Positions 45,115 to 53,414 of a stretch of 64,000 nucleotides of DNA are shown in pieces. The notes under the pieces were generated by a model. It was given only the letters and a program-made list of their open reading frames with translations. It was not told the origin of the DNA and did not search any database. Source of the stretch: Streptococcaceae bacterium AF77-01CM03A (GTDB lineage: Bacteria > Bacillota > Bacilli > Lactobacillales > Streptococcaceae); the NCBI GenBank assembly GCA_027665725.1, contig JAQDDS010000002.1:372001-436000 (forward strand). Reading direction: 5' to 3'. A program made the position numbers and the translations under genes. How positions within the stretch are numbered: the first letter of the stretch is position 1; each line of letters begins with the position of its first letter.

Positions 45115-45996
45115 ATGGCAATCGTTTCAGCAGAAAAATTTGTCCAAGCAGCTCGTGACAACGGTTATGCAGTTGGTGGATTTAACACAAACAACCTTGA
45201 GTGGACTCAAGCTATCTTGCGCGCAGCAGAAGCTAAAAAAGCTCCAGTTTTGATCCAAACTTCAATGGGTGCTGCTAAATACATGGGTGGTTACAAAGTT
45301 GCTCGCAACTTGATCGCTAACCTTGTAGAATCAATGGGTATCACTGTACCAGTAGCTATCCACCTTGACCACGGTCACTACGAAGATGCACTTGAGTGTA
45401 TCGAAGTTGGTTACACTTCAATCATGTTTGACGGTTCACATCTTCCAGTTGAAGAAAACCTTAAATTGGCTAAAGACGTTGTTGAAAAAGCACACGCTAA
45501 AGGTATCTCAGTAGAAGCTGAAGTTGGTACTATCGGTGGTGAAGAAGACGGAATCATCGGTAAAGGTGAATTGGCTCCAATCGAAGACGCTAAAGCAATG
45601 GTTGCAACTGGTATCGACTTCTTGGCAGCTGGTATCGGTAACATCCATGGTCCTTACCCAGCAAACTGGGAAGGTCTTGACCTTGACCACTTGCAAAAAT
45701 TGACAGAAGCTCTTCCAGGATTCCCAATCGTATTGCACGGTGGATCAGGTATTCCTGATGAGCAAATCCAAGCAGCTATCAAACTTGGTGTTGCTAAAGT
45801 TAACGTTAACACTGAATGCCAAATCGCATTCGCTAACGCAACTCGTAAATTTGCTCGTGACTACGAAGCAAACGAAGCAGAATACGACAAGAAGAAACTC
45901 TTCGACCCACGTAAATTCTTGGCTGACGGTGTCAAAGCTATCCAAGCATCAGTTGAAGAACGTATCGACGTATTCGGTTCAGAAGGAAAAGCTTAA
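45115..45996 (+). CDS. fba: Fructose-bisphosphate aldolase, class II
   Basis: 293-residue zinc-dependent glycolytic aldolase. Zn ligands and phosphate sites: IHLDHGHYEDA (about residue 80), EAEVGTIGGEEDG, GIGNIHGPYP, VLHGGSGIPDEQI and VNVNTECQIAF. I chose ATG 45115, preceded by AGGAGGCC, over an upstream in-frame codon. Highly biased codon use (AAC, CGT, GGT). Its last 19 bases are repeated at the far end of the following island, and its 3' end is intact. Confidence 0.97.
   Translation: MAIVSAEKFVQAARDNGYAVGGFNTNNLEWTQAILRAAEAKKAPVLIQTSMGAAKYMGGYKVARNLIANLVESMGITVPVAIHLDHGHYEDALECIEVGYTSIMFDGSHLPVEENLKLAKDVVEKAHAKGISVEAEVGTIGGEEDGIIGKGELAPIEDAKAMVATGIDFLAAGIGNIHGPYPANWEGLDLDHLQKLTEALPGFPIVLHGGSGIPDEQIQAAIKLGVAKVNVNTECQIAFANATRKFARDYEANEAEYDKKKLFDPRKFLADGVKAIQASVEERIDVFGSEGKA
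45978..45996 (+). repeat. Left copy of the island-flanking direct repeat (end of fba)
   Basis: TTCAGAAGGAAAAGCTTAA, including the fba stop codon. It matches 52332-52350 at 18 of 19 positions. Candidate left attachment site. Confidence 0.75.
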
Positions 45997-46019
45997 GAAG
46001 CTTGTAAAAGCTTGATTTA

Positions 46020-46052
46020 ACAGGGTTTATCCGATTTGGATAAACCTTTTTT
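46020..46052 (+). terminator. fba terminator
   Basis: GGTTTATCC-GATTT-GGATAAACC followed by T6. Confidence 0.88.
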
Positions 46053-46205
46053 CTTTATTTTGCCATAAATTTTTTATTGATTATCTAACATTTTTACCTA
46101 TTGAGTAACTAGTACTAGTGTAGGATCGAAAATGTTAAGAAGTATTTTAGTTCTTTTTAGAACCTTGAATTTTTGGAATGTTAAAAAAACTTTGAATTTG
46201 ATTAT

Positions 46206-46263: not shown

Positions 46264-49200
46264 ATGAAAACGTTTAAACAAGCATTGGAATCATATCTAA
46301 AATCATTAAATGAAAAACATACTATTTATGTATTAAAAGGCTTTAACTATTGGTTAGATGATCTTGATACAGATTTATTTTTAGGAGGCAAAACTGTAAA
46401 TTCATATAAGAATTTAAAAGAATCTATTAAAGAATTATCTAGTGCGACTAGAGCAATGTTTTTATTGTATGAAAATCTTCTTTATTTATACGATCAAAAT
46501 GCGTTGGGATCTATTGAATTTTTTACACAATATAAATTCATTATAATTGAAAATGATTATTTTGATAGCTATTATCCAGGATTTCGTACTGATTTAGAAA
46601 CAATTAAAAATGATTTCGAAAGTGAAGAAGATAATATAATTCAAAAATTTTATTGTGATATTCAAAAAATAGATAACACTTTATTTATGAATTTTAATGA
46701 AATTCCTGATAAAGAATTTGAGACTATTAAGTTGACAGAAGTAGGAATAAATTTTGAAGTAGATAATAGTCTTGAAATAGAGTTATATAGGAATATAAAT
46801 AACTTGGCACTTCAGGGAATTATTTTTGAGATTTTAAATTTTGGTAAAGGGAAAATTTTATGTGAAAAAGAAGGAGAATATGGTAAAAATATAGGAATAA
46901 TCAGAAAAAAATTTGAATCTATAAATATATTTATTACAGTTAAAGATGATTTTAATAAGCATGATGTTGAAGAGAGTGATTATAAAGAATACCTTGAAAT
47001 TTTACAAAGAAAGAATCAGTCATATAATTTTTTAGATATTCAAATATATCATGCCCCAGATGAAAATACTGAAACAAAAGAAATAAGCCAAGCTGTTATA
47101 ATTGATAGAATAGTGAAGAATTGTATGAAAGCTCAAAAAGAGGAGCAGTTCCGAGATATTTTTGTTACAGCTCCTACCGGTGCAGGGAAGTCTGTAATGT
47201 TCCAAATTCCAGCAATTTATTTGGCAGAAAAAAGTAATCTAGTAACAATAGTCATAAGTCCTTTGATCGGTCTTATGAATGATCAAGTCAATAATATACA
47301 ATCAATGACGAAACTAGCTGAAACAATTAACTCAGATTATACACCGTCACAAAAAGAAAATGTTTTAGAACAAATAAAGAATGGTGATAAATCCATCCTC
47401 TATCTCTCACCAGAGACTTTGCTGTCTAATACAGATATTACAAATCTAATTGGAGATCGGAAAATTGGTTTATTAGTTGTTGATGAGGCGCACATAGTCT
47501 CTACATGGGGGAAATCATTTCGTCCAGACTATTGGTATCTAGGAGAATTTATTTCAAGACTTAGAAAAAGTGAGAAATCTAATCAAAACTTTCCAATTGC
47601 AACCTTTACTGCAACAGCGACGTATGGTAGTAAAGACAATATGTATTTCGACATAATTGAATCACTGAAAATGACTGCCGAAACATTTTTAGGTAGGGTG
47701 AGACGGGATGATATCGATTTTGAGATTACTAGTAAAACTAAAGAGATAAATTATCAAGATGAAAAATTATTAGTAGCAGTTGATAGCATTAATAAGCTTC
47801 AAAAGACAGGAGAAAAAACGCTTGTCTATGTTCCATACAGAAGGCATATAGATGACATATATTCCAGATTAGAAAATCAGGAGAAAATTGGTAAATACTC
47901 TGGTGAGATGTCCTCCGGAGAAAAAAATGAAACACTAGAAAAAATTGTTAGTGGTGAGAAAAATGTCGTGTTAGCAACAAAAGCTTTTGGTATGGGGATT
48001 GATATTAATGATATTAAATATGTATACCATTTTGCTCCAACAGGGAATATCTCTGATTATTTACAGGAAATAGGAAGAGCTGCTCGTGAAAGAGGAATGA
48101 ACGGTGTTGCTCTAACTGATTTCTTTAAAGAGGATTTTCGTTACATTAATCAATTATTTGGAATGTCTGCTATTAAACAATGGCAAGTTATCGCTGTATT
48201 AAGCAAAATTAATGAGCTATATAAGAAACATAAAAAGCGTAATTTTTTGGTTTCGCCAATGGAGTTTTCACATATTTTTGCAAACGAATCAGATACAAGC
48301 AGAATAGATGCTCAGTTAAAAACAGCATTATTGATTATAAAAAAAGATTTTGAATTACTAAATTCTTCAAATTATATTCCATTAATTTTTAAACCGAGAA
48401 GTATGTTTACTAATGCGTATTTTATGATTAAAGATGGTTTTGTTGATAAGTTAGTATCTAGTGATAATTTTAAATATTTTAGAAAAATACAGATGCCAAG
48501 AAATCATACAAATGAAACATGCACAAATCCGGTTAAAGTTGAATATGTCTGGGAAACATATGTACTTGATTTTAAAAAGATGTGGGAAGAAAAATATAAG
48601 GATTTATCTTTTGCAAGTTTTAAATATTCATTTTATAACAATGAATTAAGCAATTTTGATTTTAAAGTTAATGAAGAATTAATCCCTAAAACAATAATTG
48701 AAATAAAATTCGATAAAATTAATTTTAATGATGCAATTATTGAGATGTCTAACATCTTAAATGCATTAAAGGACATTTTTGATGATATTAGGCAATCTAG
48801 AAAGCATTTCACGGTTCGAGAGCTGGCTAATAAACTTAGAGAACGTTTATCATTTAAAAACACATATACTCCAGATCTCTTAGCACAATCAATGATTTAT
48901 ATTTTGAACAATATTGATACGGGTCATTTTGTAAGACAAAATTTTGCAACTTATAATTCACAGACAGATAAGTGGAATATTCAGACAGCTTCTTATGAGA
49001 CTAGAATAAAAAAAATAATAAAACAGGCAAAATCATCACTAACTAGTAACATAAATACTATACAGATTAGTGTTAAAAATAGAAACAGCAACAAAGATAT
49101 TAAAGTGTTATTAGCTCAAATTATTGAAATTCTAGAATTAGCAGAAGTAAATATACGTACAGGAGATAATCCGGAATTTTTTGTACGTGTTAATAACTCC

Positions 49201-49704
49201 AATGCGATTGAAAAAATTATTAACGATAAGTTTTATAAGAGTAAAACGGTTGAGCAGGTTAAAGAGAAACATGATAATTCAACTAGAATAATGGAGTACT
49301 TCTTTACTCAACTTTCAACAAAGGAAGATCGTTGGAATTTTATTGAACAATATTTCTTGGGACATTTAGACACTACAGATAAAAAACAGATAAAGGACAC
49401 TCAGAGACAGTCTAAAAAAGATAATGTCTCTATAACAAATAAAGTTAAATTTTCATATTCTAACTGGGAAGAGGCAAGTGGTATTTCACCTGATGAATTT
49501 TATATTATTAATGAAATACCGATACCTACTTATTTTGGCGGGGAGTTCACATTAAATAATGAGACATATCCTTTTTCATATGTCTGGGAGGATAGAAAGA
49601 TGATTGTGTATAATCCTGAAGAAACAGAAAAATCTATCAAGAACACAAACTGTGAATGGAAAATTATTTCTGAACAGGATTTGAAATTATCTGATTTTAT
49701 GTAA
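46264..49704 (+). CDS. Large RecQ-like DNA helicase (island gene 1)
   Basis: 1146-residue helicase. Residues about 1-290 match nothing I know. The RecQ engine spans about 291-660: Walker A VTAPTGAGKSVMFQIPA (about 300), SPLIGLMNDQV, LSPETLL, motif II VVDEAHIVSTWGKSFRPDY (the RecQ aromatic loop form), TFTATAT, VLATKAFGMGIDINDIKYVYHF, and motif VI LQEIGRAARERG (about 600). The ~480-residue C-terminal part lacks an obvious zinc-binding RQC or HRDC domain. Arg codons are mostly AGA and the gene is much more AT-rich than fba or vnc genes, indicating transfer. It lies 12 bases before the NERD-UvrD gene and probably works with it in phage or plasmid defence; that role is inference. Confidence 0.85.
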   Translation: MKTFKQALESYLKSLNEKHTIYVLKGFNYWLDDLDTDLFLGGKTVNSYKNLKESIKELSSATRAMFLLYENLLYLYDQNALGSIEFFTQYKFIIIENDYFDSYYPGFRTDLETIKNDFESEEDNIIQKFYCDIQKIDNTLFMNFNEIPDKEFETIKLTEVGINFEVDNSLEIELYRNINNLALQGIIFEILNFGKGKILCEKEGEYGKNIGIIRKKFESINIFITVKDDFNKHDVEESDYKEYLEILQRKNQSYNFLDIQIYHAPDENTETKEISQAVIIDRIVKNCMKAQKEEQFRDIFVTAPTGAGKSVMFQIPAIYLAEKSNLVTIVISPLIGLMNDQVNNIQSMTKLAETINSDYTPSQKENVLEQIKNGDKSILYLSPETLLSNTDITNLIGDRKIGLLVVDEAHIVSTWGKSFRPDYWYLGEFISRLRKSEKSNQNFPIATFTATATYGSKDNMYFDIIESLKMTAETFLGRVRRDDIDFEITSKTKEINYQDEKLLVAVDSINKLQKTGEKTLVYVPYRRHIDDIYSRLENQEKIGKYSGEMSSGEKNETLEKIVSGEKNVVLATKAFGMGIDINDIKYVYHFAPTGNISDYLQEIGRAARERGMNGVALTDFFKEDFRYINQLFGMSAIKQWQVIAVLSKINELYKKHKKRNFLVSPMEFSHIFANESDTSRIDAQLKTALLIIKKDFELLNSSNYIPLIFKPRSMFTNAYFMIKDGFVDKLVSSDNFKYFRKIQMPRNHTNETCTNPVKVEYVWETYVLDFKKMWEEKYKDLSFASFKYSFYNNELSNFDFKVNEELIPKTIIEIKFDKINFNDAIIEMSNILNALKDIFDDIRQSRKHFTVRELANKLRERLSFKNTYTPDLLAQSMIYILNNIDTGHFVRQNFATYNSQTDKWNIQTASYETRIKKIIKQAKSSLTSNINTIQISVKNRNSNKDIKVLLAQIIEILELAEVNIRTGDNPEFFVRVNNSNAIEKIINDKFYKSKTVEQVKEKHDNSTRIMEYFFTQLSTKEDRWNFIEQYFLGHLDTTDKKQIKDTQRQSKKDNVSITNKVKFSYSNWEEASGISPDEFYIINEIPIPTYFGGEFTLNNETYPFSYVWEDRKMIVYNPEETEKSIKNTNCEWKIISEQDLKLSDFM

Positions 49705-49716
49705 AGGAGATTAGCA

Positions 49717-51441
49717 GTGGTTCATTTAATACCTAAAAATAGAGATATCAAAGAATTTCATGGTTCGTCTGGAGAAATGCGTCTTTATAATGAATTCAAA
49801 AAACTATCAGATAAATGGTATATATTTCATTCTATTAAATGGTCAAGAATTGTATATAGAAGTGATTTGAATAGAGATTGTTTCAAACAAAGTGAATCTG
49901 ATTTTGTTATCCTTAATCCAGACTATGGACTATTGACGTTAGAAGTAAAATCGGGTGGTTTTGTAATAGAAGATAATAGATTAAAGCAGATTAGAAGAGA
50001 TACTAATGAGGTTGTATCATGTAAAAGTCCAATGGATCAAGCGGATGCTTCAAAGTTTATGTTTCGGAGTATATTGACGGATCATTTTACTAATTTTGAT
50101 GATAGATATCCAGTTCATGCGATGGTTTGGTTAACTGATGTGTCATCTAAGGACATACAAGGCAAATTTCCACACGACTATCATATAAGACAAAACACAT
50201 TTTTTCATGAAGATTTAGAAAATGTTGAAGAAACATTGATAAAATGTTTTGAATTTTATAAAGTTCTTCCCCAAAAGAAGGACAATAAGATTATTGCTAA
50301 AACGATAAATTTGATTGCTCCAGAAGTTAATGCGATTCCTGCTCTACATACTGAAATTGAAGATGAAAATTATTTTATAGATCGTATGACCACACAACAA
50401 GGATATTTATTAGATTATTTGGAAGAACAAAAGATTGCTGCTATTCAAGGAGGAGCAGGGACAGGGAAAACAGTTCTGGCAGTTGAAAAAGCAAGAAGAT
50501 TAAGCCAAAATCAAAAAGTAGTTTATTTATGTTTCAATAGAATGTTAGTCGAATATTTACAGAAAAAGTATAATGAAGAACTACCAAATGTTGATTTTAC
50601 TAATTTATATTCTTTAACAGCAAAAGCATTAAAGAAAGTTAAAGTAGAAAAACAAGATATTTTATATTTCTTAAAACATTTAGAAGATTATACGGATATT
50701 TGGAATTATAATTCAATTATAATTGATGAAGGACAAGATTTTTCAAATGACGAAATTACTGAATTAAAAGAATACCTGGAAATTAGTGATGAAGAAGGAA
50801 GTTTTTATATCTTTTATGATAAAAATCAGTTAGTCCAACAAAGAAATAATTTAGAATGGTTACAAAATATGGACTGTCGTTTAATTCTGTCAATAAATTG
50901 TCGTAATACACAATGTGTTGCAGAAACAGCATTAAGTCCTTTAGGGATCAATGGTGTAAAGACTAAAATGCCAATAAAAGGGGAAATCCCCTTGATGAAT
51001 ATTTCTGATGATGAAAATGATTCTATTGAATGGATTAATAAAAAAATACGTGAGCTGACGGATAATGGGATCAAAAAAGATCAAATTACTATTTTATCTG
51101 TCAAAGGCGAGGGTCAATCTATTTATTCGAATAGAACAAAAATTGGAAATTATTCCATTTCTTCTGAAAAGGAATCGGGGAAAATATTGTTCACAACTGC
51201 TAGAAAATTTAAAGGTTTGGAGTCAGATTTTATTTTATTAGTAGATGTTGATGCTGAAACGTTTAGAGATGAAGAACAAAAAAGATTATTTTATGTTGGT
51301 GCTTCAAGAGCTAGAAACAGATTATTTATTACTTCTGTTGTAAGTGAAGAAGAAGAGAAACAAATGGTGCGAGCAATTACAAATGGAAGCTACGAAAAAA
51401 GAATGAGATTAGCTTCATATTTGAAAGTTACTTTAAAGTAG
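49717..51441 (+). CDS. NERD nuclease-UvrD-type helicase fusion (island gene 2)
   Basis: 574-residue protein. Residues about 12-150 form a NERD (nuclease-related) domain: HGSSGEMRLYNEF with a conserved Glu, QSESDFVILNP with Asp, and LLTLEVKSGGF giving the D-(E)xK core of the PD-(D/E)XK fold. From about 230 a UvrD/Rep-type ATPase follows: IQGGAGTGKTVLAVEKA (about 245), VVYLCFNRML, IIIDEGQDFSNDE, LILSINCRNT, FTTARKFKGLESDFILLVD, and LFYVGASRARNRLFI. Start is GTG after AAAGGAG, which overlaps the stop of the RecQ gene; the two are almost certainly co-translated. AGA-rich codons. Similar NERD-helicase proteins occur in defence islands; a specific named system is not recognised. Confidence 0.87.
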   Translation: MVHLIPKNRDIKEFHGSSGEMRLYNEFKKLSDKWYIFHSIKWSRIVYRSDLNRDCFKQSESDFVILNPDYGLLTLEVKSGGFVIEDNRLKQIRRDTNEVVSCKSPMDQADASKFMFRSILTDHFTNFDDRYPVHAMVWLTDVSSKDIQGKFPHDYHIRQNTFFHEDLENVEETLIKCFEFYKVLPQKKDNKIIAKTINLIAPEVNAIPALHTEIEDENYFIDRMTTQQGYLLDYLEEQKIAAIQGGAGTGKTVLAVEKARRLSQNQKVVYLCFNRMLVEYLQKKYNEELPNVDFTNLYSLTAKALKKVKVEKQDILYFLKHLEDYTDIWNYNSIIIDEGQDFSNDEITELKEYLEISDEEGSFYIFYDKNQLVQQRNNLEWLQNMDCRLILSINCRNTQCVAETALSPLGINGVKTKMPIKGEIPLMNISDDENDSIEWINKKIRELTDNGIKKDQITILSVKGEGQSIYSNRTKIGNYSISSEKESGKILFTTARKFKGLESDFILLVDVDAETFRDEEQKRLFYVGASRARNRLFITSVVSEEEEKQMVRAITNGSYEKRMRLASYLKVTLK

Positions 51442-51484
51442 CAGTATTATTCATACAGCAAGTATTTAATATAGCTATGTTATT

Positions 51485-51513
51485 TTGTTCAGCCTTAAAT
51501 CAAGTATTATAAG
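51485..51513 (+). promoter_or_regulatory. Promoter before island gene 3
   Basis: TTGTTC (51485-51490), 17-base spacer, TATAAG (51508-51513), 40 bases before the ATG at 51553. Confidence 0.55.
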
Positions 51514-51552
51514 TAATAGAAGATTTATTTTTACAAAGAAAGGTAGAAAAAA

Positions 51553-52122
51553 ATGAACCAAAAAGAATTTCAAACAATAATCAATAAGAATTTTGAGCAT
51601 ATTCCAGATTCTCTAATTAATTTCAGTGATGTTAAAGAATGTGAATTTTTAGCGGATTAATTATCATTTATGGGATATGGCCAAAATGCTGAAGGATACT
51701 TTAAACATAACAATGTACCTAATCCATCACAACGATTCCATCTCACAGAAGCGTATTTTGAATATAAATTTAGCAAAGCAAAAGACAAGATAGAAAAGGA
51801 GCTCATTAAAGACTGCGAATTAAGTGGAATTCGATGTCCTCAATTGATGTTGTGGATTGCGGAGATTGTCCAAATACCAGAAGAAGTATTACAAGATGCT
51901 TATAATTATATAGTTAAAGCTGAAGAAGAATTATTTCATAAAAAAGGAATAAATAAAGGTTTACTTGGAGCAGATAAGTATTGGAAAATAATGACAGAGA
52001 ACTCACATATTACATTGAGTGAATTTCGGACGAAATTAAAGTATTTAGAAATATGTAAAATTATTAAAAGTTCTAGTGATTGGTCAGAAATTATTGCAAA
52101 CTGTCAAAGCTTAGATTTCTAA
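51553..52122 (+). pseudogene. Island gene 3, interrupted by one in-frame stop
   Basis: The frame starts at ATG 51553 (MNQKEFQTIINKNFEHIPDS) with GAAAGG upstream, meets TAA at 51658-51660, and continues in the same frame as LSFMGYGQNAEGYFKHN to 52122. Without the stop it would encode about 189 residues, mostly helical and charged, with no motif I recognise (RCPQLMLWIAEIVQIPEEVLQDAYNYIV is the most conserved-looking part). A re-start at ATG 51670 would give 150 residues but lacks a ribosome site. AT-rich like its neighbours, so it belongs to the island. A nonsense mutation or a sequencing error are both possible. Confidence 0.75.
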
Positions 52123-52331: not shown

Positions 52332-52350
52332 TTCAGAAGGTAAAGCTTAA
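52332..52350 (+). repeat. Right copy of the island-flanking direct repeat
   Basis: TTCAGAAGGTAAAGCTTAA, one base different from the last 19 bases of fba. It carries no coding context here. Candidate right attachment site; the fba-like TAA is retained within it. Confidence 0.75.
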
Positions 52351-52446: not shown

Positions 52447-52475
52447 TTGCTAAAAGAGTCTAATTTTTGTACAAT
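52447..52475 (+). promoter_or_regulatory. Hydrolase promoter ending 6 bases before the start codon
   Basis: TTGCTA (52447-52452), 17-base spacer, TACAAT (52470-52475); ATG begins at 52482. No ribosome site precedes the ATG, so transcription may begin at the start codon. Confidence 0.6.
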
Positions 52476-52481
52476 AATGCT

Positions 52482-53414
52482 ATGAAAATACTGAAAAAAT
52501 CAGCCCTTGTCCTTCTTACTTTCCTTATCTTGTTTTTAGTAGGGACATTTATCTTTCATCGTATCAGCTTAGAAAAGGAACAAGCCTCTCTAACTCCTAT
52601 GGGTAAAACTGTCCTCGTTAATGGGCACAAAATCAATGTTTACGTTGAGGGGGATGGTCCAGAGACAATAGTAGTTCTATCAGGTGCTGGAATTGCTTCC
52701 CCAATCTTGGACTTTAAGAATGTTTCAGATTCCTTATCAAAAAAATATAAGGTAGTCATTGTGGAGCGGGCTGGCTATGGTTATAGCGAGGATAGTAATC
52801 AGTCCAGAGATGTGATGGAAGTTTTGTCTGAAACTCGTCAAGCTCTTTCTCAGGCTAATGTCACAGGGCCTTTTATTATTCTATCTCATTCAATGGCTAG
52901 TCTTGAAAGTCTGGCTTGGCAGGAAAAGTATCCTGATGAAGTGAAAGCCTTGGTTGGTCTGGATTGGGCATTACCAGCAAGTTATGAGGATTTAAAGGAT
53001 AATCAGGCCTTGCTTACTGTGGCTTATTGGAGCAGTAAGATTGGCTTATTACGCTATTTCCCTGAGTCCTTTTATATAAAAAATCCAACTCTGACTGAAA
53101 CTGAACGACAACAATATAAATTACTAGCATTTAAGCAGTTGATGTCACAAGCCATGCTTCATGAATCCCGTTTAGCAAAGGAAAATGCCAAGAAAGTTCC
53201 ATCTAGCATTAATCCGAAAATTCCAGCCTTATTACTGGTTTCTAACGGTGAAGGCACGACCTTTAGCCAATCAGAATGGCAGCGTTATGCAGAGAAGTTT
53301 TCTAGTGACGAGTCTAATGTTCAAGTCATCTATATGGATGCGCCTCACGAACTTTATCATTATCAAAGTCATGAAATAGTTTCTCAGATTGAAGATTTTT
53401 TAAAGAGTCATTGA
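52482..53414 (+). CDS. Membrane-anchored alpha/beta hydrolase
   Basis: 310-residue protein. An N-terminal membrane helix (ALVLLTFLILFLVGTFIF) puts the enzyme outside the cell. The alpha/beta hydrolase fold is shown by the strand VVLSGAGIASPILDF, the nucleophile elbow ILSHSMASLESL (SHSMA in place of GxSxG, Ser about residue 135), and the C-terminal His in MDAPHELYHYQ. The altered elbow is typical of some hydrolases and does not exclude activity. Substrate unknown. I use ATG 52482; an in-frame upstream start would sit in the promoter. Confidence 0.83.
   Translation: MKILKKSALVLLTFLILFLVGTFIFHRISLEKEQASLTPMGKTVLVNGHKINVYVEGDGPETIVVLSGAGIASPILDFKNVSDSLSKKYKVVIVERAGYGYSEDSNQSRDVMEVLSETRQALSQANVTGPFIILSHSMASLESLAWQEKYPDEVKALVGLDWALPASYEDLKDNQALLTVAYWSSKIGLLRYFPESFYIKNPTLTETERQQYKLLAFKQLMSQAMLHESRLAKENAKKVPSSINPKIPALLLVSNGEGTTFSQSEWQRYAEKFSSDESNVQVIYMDAPHELYHYQSHEIVSQIEDFLKSH

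What the first reader, a model, noticed from the sequence alone, without database searches (positions are those of the whole stretch)
46264..52122. Candidate defence system: RecQ-like helicase + NERD-UvrD fusion + small third gene
Seen: two large genes 12 bases apart, the ribosome site of the second overlapping the stop of the first, and a third AT-rich gene behind them. Known: NERD nucleases, RecQ-like and UvrD-like helicases recur in anti-phage systems such as Gabija, Nhi and Hachiman, which pair a nuclease with a helicase. Inference: this is a helicase-helicase-nuclease system that unwinds and cuts invading DNA. I do not recognise it as one of the named systems, since it combines two different helicase superfamilies with a NERD domain.
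Basis: partly seen in the sequence, partly recalled or inferred. Interest (0 to 1): 0.85.

Follow-up and report, generated by a model that had tools for sequence, protein, structure and literature searches.

The report
Imported RecQ plus nuclease-helicase defence pair
Two adjoining genes, one for a RecQ-like helicase and one for a nuclease fused to a second helicase, arrived together on a small foreign insert at a spot where related bacteria keep other anti-phage systems, so they are probably an uncharacterised immune system that attacks invading DNA.

Summary
The pair is real: 46264-49704 (1146 aa, RecQ-like helicase with large extra N- and C-terminal parts) and 49717-51441 (574 aa, NERD nuclease fused to a UvrD-like helicase), intact and 12 nt apart. 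The 'third gene' is an interrupted passenger, not a component. The pair lies on an AT-rich 6.35-kb insert in the 3' end of the preceding gene (fba, named by eye), bounded by a 19-bp repeat (18/19). The site is empty in 9 of 11 congeners with the same flanks; gene 2 is in 0 of 284 congeneric genomes (control 8 of 8). At the same fba end, 5 of 10 fetched congeners carry defence-type genes (Septu-like, type IIG, GmrSD, methylase). Of 80 NERD-UvrD loci elsewhere, 12 have the long RecQ-like gene directly upstream, 11 a short RecQ, 16 a DruE-like helicase. Defence is supported by position and association; the mechanism is inferred and no assay exists. PADLOC already models both proteins as unnamed candidates; nine literature searches found no named system with this pair. 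Best filed as a new variant of helicase-nuclease defence, with NERD-UvrD as a swappable partner of different SF2 helicases.

The parts
45978..45996 (+). left copy of a 19-bp direct repeat: last 19 bases of the upstream gene (fba by eye)
   Evidence: the repeat finder family D15, 95% identity, spacing 6354; empty sites hold one copy
45978..46072 (+). fba tip plus terminator of another streptococcal lineage (terminator-like stem 46022-46048)
   Evidence: 89-95% identical to the fba end of 15 of 279 congeneric genomes, no match in the nearest genome; terminator scan
46264..49704 (+). gene 1: RecQ-like SF2 helicase, 1146 aa; helicase core about residues 295-608, extra N-terminal part 1-230 and C-terminal part 650-1146
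   Evidence: Pfam DEAD/Helicase_C; PADLOC C3a193 4.4e-147 over residues 45-1035; conserved motifs in 37 sequences; fold of core
49717..51441 (+). gene 2: NERD nuclease - UvrD-like helicase fusion, 574 aa; NERD about residues 14-120, motor about 217-545
   Evidence: UvrD_C, SLFN-g3_helicase; RTasNERD-Hel 3.9e-65; invariant E20, E60, D62, E76, K78 and Walker motifs in 23 sequences; fold
51553..51660 (+). 5' piece of the interrupted third gene (35 codons, then an in-frame stop); passenger
   Evidence: sequence; intact relatives
51670..52122 (+). 3' piece of the interrupted third gene (150 aa); passenger, not a system part
   Evidence: no Pfam, PADLOC or NCBIfam hit; no relative in L008-L094
52332..52350 (+). 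right copy of the 19-bp repeat: start of the resident fba 3' flank
   Evidence: the repeat finder; the flank of 9 of 11 congeners aligns from 52332

Best explanation
A horizontally acquired two-gene defence system against phages and/or plasmids. Shown: an intact RecQ-like SF2 helicase and an intact NERD-UvrD protein, 12 nt apart, on a foreign insert at a site that holds other defence-type genes in related bacteria, and the same pair in the same order in distant Bacillota. Inferred: gene 1, with its large N- and C-terminal additions, recognises aberrant DNA of the invader (forks, gaps, ends or flaps made during replication), opens it with ATP and loads or activates the partner; NERD-UvrD then tracks along the exposed strand and its NERD domain nicks or degrades it, working like a two-motor helicase-nuclease. 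NERD-UvrD seems to be the interchangeable half: elsewhere it sits beside a short RecQ or behind a DruE-like helicase.
For: Motifs of both motors and of the nuclease invariant across relatives. Foreign insert: GC 28.7% against 38%, 19-bp repeat, 9 of 11 congeneric sites empty, gene 2 in 0 of 284 congeneric genomes with 8 of 8 controls found. Hotspot: 5 of 10 fetched congeners carry defence-type genes behind fba, one (L120) between the same duplicated fba tips. Pairing: long RecQ directly upstream in 12 of 80 loci, spacing -23 to +6 nt in the 11 measured, distance correlation r 0.90, 0 of 5000 permutations. In a hand-chosen set of ten neighbour proteins of either gene's relatives, a C5 methylase, an Eco57I methylase, a T5orf172-ResIII protein, a MutH-type protein and a DUF3427-PLD helicase; a type I RM system beside a gene 1 relative on an Enterococcus plasmid.
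Against: No activity or protection was tested. 40 of 80 NERD-UvrD loci show none of the three helicase partners within the held flanks, and gene 1 relatives in 7 of 7 Lactobacillales loci lack gene 2 nearby, so neither gene strictly needs the other. L040 and L042 look near-identical, so the 12 are not all independent, and the distance correlation does not separate co-evolution from shared ancestry. Two of the ten chosen neighbours are not defence genes (pectin-type lyase, FtsX permease). Two of 11 congeneric sites hold small genes of unknown kind.
Confidence: 0.7

Rival explanations
1. The pair is an accessory DNA-repair or recombination module (RecQ/AddAB-like) carried on a mobile insert, not an immune system.
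For: The core of gene 1 is closest to RecQ, BLM, WRN and RECQL5 and the motor of gene 2 to UvrD, all repair enzymes.
Against: Sporadic, foreign and AT-rich; gene 1 fails the RecQ model cut-offs; the insertion site holds restriction and Septu-like genes in relatives.
Confidence: 0.13
2. The proteins are ancillary effectors of another system (type III CRISPR or a defence reverse transcriptase), here stranded without it.
For: Best PADLOC profiles bear CRISPR- and DRT-related labels: C3a193 'poss. alt. Cas3', C3a187, RTasNERD-Hel. NERD and UvrD are named in a figure legend of putative CRISPR auxiliary genes in PMC10910872 (passage).
Against: The insert holds no other intact gene and no repeat array was reported in it. 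The recurrent neighbours found were SF2 helicases; but neighbours were not searched for reverse transcriptases or cas genes.
Confidence: 0.1
3. The two genes are neighbours without functional link, independent single-gene defence or repair genes in one hotspot.
For: Each family occurs without the other.
Against: Same order, strand and near-zero spacing in 12 of 80 loci collected by gene 2 alone, at 28-43% identity to the window.
Confidence: 0.05

Closest known systems
PADLOC candidate profiles C3a193 and C3a187 (unnamed)
   Same: C3a193 covers residues 45-1035 of gene 1 (4.4e-147); C3a187 'NERD+UvrD' covers residues 17-549 of gene 2 (1.9e-15)
   Different: Only candidate profiles labelled 'poss. 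alt. Cas3' and 'NERD+UvrD'; no function, no statement that they form a pair; their origin was not read
DRT-associated NERD-helicase (PADLOC RTasNERD-Hel)
   Same: Best profile of gene 2, residues 1-539, 3.9e-65
   Different: No reverse transcriptase on the insert: its ORFs are gene 1, gene 2 and the broken third gene
Gabija (GajAB)
   Same: UvrD-like helicase; GajB profiles match parts of gene 2 (best 1.7e-8); nuclease-helicase logic
   Different: No GajA-type partner: the partner is a RecQ-like helicase and the nuclease is NERD, fused
Nhi
   Same: Nhi profile matches residues 217-380 of gene 2 (2.2e-10); NERD is listed for Nhi-like and Mokosh type I in PMC10952713 (passage)
   Different: Only part of the motor matches; two-gene system with a RecQ-like helicase
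Druantia (DruE)
   Same: In 16 of 80 loci a DruE-like helicase is directly upstream of a NERD-UvrD gene; profiled in L017 (7.3e-174)
   Different: The window has a RecQ-like helicase instead of DruE
TALON (YprA-like helicase plus NERD nuclease), preprint PMC12458937
   Same: Pairs an SF2 helicase with a NERD nuclease in a predicted defence operon (passages and section 5)
   Different: YprA/ARMADA-like helicase with TPR-CSD and TBP genes, largely in Chloroflexota
Vertebrate Schlafens SLFN11/SLFN14
   Same: First in Foldseek for the gene 2 model (3.7e-14), spanning model 1-542 on SLFN11 404-899
   Different: RMSD 12-14 A; UvrD has the best Z (29.5 at 3.1 A); the NERD to Schlafen-linker relation is a lead only

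Membership tests
Housekeeping RecQ | score above the curated RecQ cut-off | tested here: not met
   recQ 226.6 against 640.2; recQ_fam 209.8 against 219.8; match limited to residues 296-658
Gabija | GajA (OLD/TOPRIM nuclease) partner | tested here: not met
   no GajA among the PADLOC rows shown for gene 1 (25 of 34) or for gene 2 (19 of 19); the partner is RecQ-like. The definition is recalled
Hachiman | HamA nuclease with HamB helicase | tested here: inconclusive
   no HamA or HamB among the rows shown, but 9 of 34 rows for gene 1 were not shown
Nhi | single full-length Nhi protein | tested here: not met
   only residues 217-380 of gene 2 match the Nhi profile, positions 179-308 of 470
Mokosh type I | MkoA/MkoB proteins | tested here: inconclusive
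   no Mko row among the rows shown; whether the library names such models was not checked
DRT with NERD-helicase | NERD-helicase of the RTasNERD-Hel profile | tested here: met
   gene 2, 3.9e-65
DRT with NERD-helicase | reverse transcriptase beside it | tested here: not met
   no reverse-transcriptase hit for the ORFs on the insert; ORFs in the rest of the window were not profiled
Type III CRISPR ancillary (C3a193 / C3a187) | profile match | tested here: met
Type III CRISPR ancillary (C3a193 / C3a187) | type III cas genes and CRISPR array at the locus | tested here: inconclusive
   none on the insert; the rest of the window and the genome were not searched for them
Druantia | DruE helicase | tested here: not met
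   gene 1 matches RecQ-type and C3a193 profiles; its one shown DruE row is weak (1.7e-4, residues 562-618)
Two-motor helicase-nuclease (works like) | two complete motors and one nuclease motif, conserved | tested here: met
   invariant motifs in alignments of 37 and 23 sequences
Two-motor helicase-nuclease (works like) | physical complex; unwinding and cutting | not testable with these tools
   needs biochemistry
Anti-phage defence system | protection of a host | not testable with these tools
   needs plaque and transformation assays

The most novel reading that the evidence does not exclude
NERD-UvrD is a general, interchangeable effector cartridge used by different SF2 'sensor' helicases (long RecQ, short RecQ with a ~320-aa helper, DruE-like). 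Some of these systems read transcription or replication intermediates: a sigma-70/MzaA-like gene precedes gene 1 relatives (7 of 7 Lactobacillales loci, an Enterococcus plasmid, L015), and RNA polymerase alpha-CTD domains occur in 2 of 9 profiled partners before the DruE-like helicase. The effector shares its domain order with the C-terminal half of vertebrate Schlafens, hinting at an ancient shared immune helicase module.
Probability: 0.15. Interest if true: 0.85.

Novelty: new variant of a known kind. Interest (0 to 1): 0.6.

Why it matters
If right, it adds a helicase-nuclease immune system found across distant Bacillota whose effector half is shared with other helicase systems, so that one effector can be tested with several sensors. 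It also marks the 3' end of fba as a defence hotspot in streptococci, a practical place to look for further systems, and raises a testable link between bacterial NERD-UvrD proteins and vertebrate Schlafens.

Tried and rejected
Third gene as a component: rejected (interrupted; no relative in L008-L094; the longest contigs of its relatives differ from those of gene 1 and gene 2 relatives, which is indirect). Housekeeping repair operon: rejected. Phage origin: one hit (24% identity) in 50,697 phage records; a scan of viral contigs with the single gene 2 protein gave no relative. The same kind of single-protein scan also found none in genome contigs, where the alignment A1 found 163, so the viral scan is weak evidence. 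Rfam on the insert: nothing at gathering scores. Promoter scan: 45 found against 40.1 expected, uninformative. Fold of the added parts of gene 1: structure hits barely cover residues before 229, so their fold is unassigned; no fold can be excluded. Literature: nine searches answered. RecQ+NERD+phage, NERD+helicase+phage defense+RecQ, and sigma factor+RecQ+antiphage+helicase+defense system each returned 0 papers; the library is open-access PMC only.

Rows dropped before counts: of 21 of 59 genomes matching the right-flank gene I used the 11 at 79% identity or more; the 10 at 33-44% were left out because their match is not beside fba. Of 25 of 279 genomes matching the left flank at E 1e-4 I count 15 strong ones (89-95%) and fetched 10 of them. 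Of 163 gene 2 relatives the tool kept 80. L052 (shortened gene 1) was left out of the pair measurement.
Full report
OBSERVATION. Two long ORFs lie at 46264-49704 and 49717-51441, + strand, 12 nt apart, with the second ribosome site overlapping the stop of the first. Gene 1 (1146 aa) carries DEAD and Helicase_C. Its best curated relatives are RecQ-type (recQ 5.4e-67, recQ_fam 6.5e-62), but it scores below both cut-offs and only residues 296-658 are covered. Gene 2 (574 aa) carries UvrD_C and the Schlafen group-3 helicase model; PADLOC's RTasNERD-Hel profile covers residues 1-539 (3.9e-65). Pfam does not call NERD on this protein; many of its homologues do carry PF08378. In 23 aligned sequences E20, E60, D62, E76, K78, the Walker A glycines and lysine, and D337-E338-Q340-D341 are invariant. 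In 37 gene 1 relatives the Walker A, DE-H and motif VI residues are invariant. That E60/D62/E76-x-K78 is the PD-(D/E)XK-type site of NERD is recalled, not a call.

THIRD GENE. ORF 51670-52122 is the 3' part of a gene whose 5' part is 51553-51660, with one in-frame stop between them in the window. Ten database relatives were found; seven cover the whole 150-aa query, and six of these are 188-211 aa and uninterrupted. None lies in L008-L094. It is a passenger. That intact copies exist says nothing about function; no family library names it.

THE INSERT. GC is 28.7% against 38% for the window. The last 19 bases of the upstream gene (fructose-bisphosphate aldolase, fba, by eye) at 45978-45996 recur at 52332-52350 with one mismatch, 6354 nt apart. 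In 11 congeneric genomes with a close relative (79-94%) of the right-flank gene (52467-53414, hydrolase-like by eye), the fba and right-flank matches are 92-134 nt apart in 9; in 2 they are about 1.86 kb (G001) and 1.04 kb (G396) apart, with other small ORFs between. The flank of 9 of 11 aligns from 52332 onward; in the two most divergent it aligns from 52446 and 52461. The left 95 bases (fba tip plus terminator) match the fba end of 15 of 279 congeneric genomes at 89-95%, but not that of the nearest genome. So the insert seems to have brought the fba tip of another lineage and displaced the resident one to the right. In G707 the same stretch is duplicated 3.6 kb apart. In L123 and L127 a 113-aa ORF lies right behind the fba terminator; in L123 it matches the C-terminal part of the phage-integrase family (4e-7), and the L127 ORF begins almost identically. 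A tyrosine-recombinase site whose insert lost its integrase is one reading; exchange by natural transformation is another. Neither is shown. The genus name Streptococcus is inferred (for example from the homologue P0006, named as S. suis); the genomes used are unnamed.

A DEFENCE HOTSPOT. Of 10 genomes fetched from the 15, five carry defence-type genes behind fba. L120, between the two repeats: an AAA ATPase and an HNH protein matching PDC-M62A/B and, more weakly, PtuA/PtuB of Septu. L122: a type IIG restriction-methylase (9.8e-226) and a GmrSD_N protein. L123: an N6-methylase and an S-subunit-like protein. L127: similar ORFs, not profiled. L129: an ATPase matching PDC-M01A and PtuA, about 1 kb further on. 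The other five carry there an ORF of 277-284 aa that looks like a methyltransferase by eye and was not profiled.

DISTRIBUTION. Gene 2 was found in 0 of 395 Lactobacillales genomes and 0 of 284 congeneric genomes; the control recovered 8 of 8 known carriers at 33-44% identity. Gene 1 relatives (34-39%) are in 7 of 395 Lactobacillales genomes, none of the same genus. Close relatives exist in sequence databases: gene 1 at 87-97%, gene 2 at 84-95% full length. Six of the top eleven gene 1 hits share their longest-contig length with one of the top eleven gene 2 hits, which suggests but does not prove co-location.

ASSOCIATIONS. From genome contigs 163 gene 2 relatives were found and the best 80 kept. 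Local profiles sort these 80: a long RecQ (gene 1 family) directly upstream in 12 (L015, L016, L018, L027, L032, L034, L040-L044, L052, the last shortened); a contig-cut fragment of it in L019; a short RecQ in 11, ten of them with a ~320-aa gene (L035 is cut by the contig; L047, L050, L051, L055, L057, L069 have NERD-UvrD first); a DruE-like helicase directly upstream in 16; none of these in 40. Spacing of the long-RecQ pair is -23 to +6 nt in 11 loci; the distances of the two proteins correlate (r 0.90; 0 of 5000 permutations; 12 pairs with the window). Shared ancestry alone can give such a correlation, and L040 and L042 look near-identical. The window proteins are 28-43% identical to these pairs, so the pairing is old.

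EACH WITHOUT THE OTHER. In L008-L014 (7 of 7 Lactobacillales loci) no gene 2 lies nearby, but a sigma-70-type gene lies directly before gene 1 (in L013 in two pieces); likewise on an Enterococcus plasmid behind a type I RM system. Four of these sigma-type proteins match PADLOC's MzaA (L009, L012, L014, L015), two were run against NCBIfam and match MzaA below its cut-off (L009, L015). L015 has sigma-type gene, long RecQ and NERD-UvrD in a row. In 11 genomes with a gene 2 relative and no partner of this kind, gene 1 was found in none; one match in G451 covers the helicase core only. Among 244 genomes of the class of one Saccharibacteria carrier, 2 hold gene 1 without gene 2 nearby, beside a C5 methylase or an Eco57I methylase with a ResIII protein. 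Of ten hand-chosen neighbours, a C5 methylase, an Eco57I methylase, a T5orf172-ResIII protein, a MutH-type protein and a DUF3427-PLD helicase are defence-type; a double GTPase and an Hsp70-VWA protein are suggestive (recalled); an HATPase is unclear; a pectin-type lyase and an FtsX permease are not.

MECHANISM. Shown: intact motifs, adjacency, foreign insert, defence-type location, recurrence. Inferred: gene 1 recognises and opens aberrant invader DNA; NERD-UvrD moves along and cuts it. Confidence 0.7 for defence; each mechanistic step is less certain.

KNOWN OR NEW. PADLOC already holds both components as unnamed candidates. No named system with this pair turned up in the profile libraries or in nine literature searches. 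Passages were read in PMC12458937 (and section 5), PMC10952713, PMC12409351, PMC10910872 and PMC12839542; none was read whole. The nearest published logic is TALON in the preprint PMC12458937: a YprA-like helicase with a NERD nuclease. Hence: new variant of a known kind.

Noticed in passing
L120, L122, L123, L127, L129 (fba 3' end of unnamed congeneric genomes): Septu-like, type IIG / GmrSD, and methylase / S-subunit-like genes behind fba; in L120 between duplicated fba tips.
   Followed up: partly
L037, L038, L045, L046, L047, L050, L051, L055, L057, L069 (and L035, cut by the contig): A short RecQ (~540 aa) with a ~320-aa gene and NERD-UvrD, in two gene orders; two ~320-aa proteins gave no hit in Pfam, PADLOC or NCBIfam. 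A candidate three-gene system.
   Followed up: partly
L017, L023, L024, L025, L026, L030, L036, L053, L054, L056, L058, L060, L062, L064, L078, L080: A DreE-like (Druantia DruE) helicase directly before NERD-UvrD, mostly behind a large unassigned gene; 2 of 9 such large proteins profiled carry RNA polymerase alpha-CTD domains (L017, L024).
   Followed up: partly
L008-L014, L015, L095: A sigma-70-type gene directly before gene 1 relatives; MzaA-like in the four profiled with PADLOC.
   Followed up: partly
window 49717-51441 (model m1018e76bb1de): Foldseek ranks human SLFN11/SLFN14 above all bacterial helicases for the whole NERD-UvrD model.
   Followed up: partly
L123 428-769 (-) and L127 330-671 (-): Fragment of a tyrosine integrase right behind the fba terminator (only L123 profiled).
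   Followed up: no
L098 1034-2603 and L099 1045-1846: Other small inserts behind fba in G001 (helix-turn-helix-like by eye, and small ORFs) and G396 (two small ORFs); function unknown.
   Followed up: no
window 51553-52122: A gene of a family known here only from ten database relatives, interrupted by one in-frame stop in this window; intact copies exist.
   Followed up: partly
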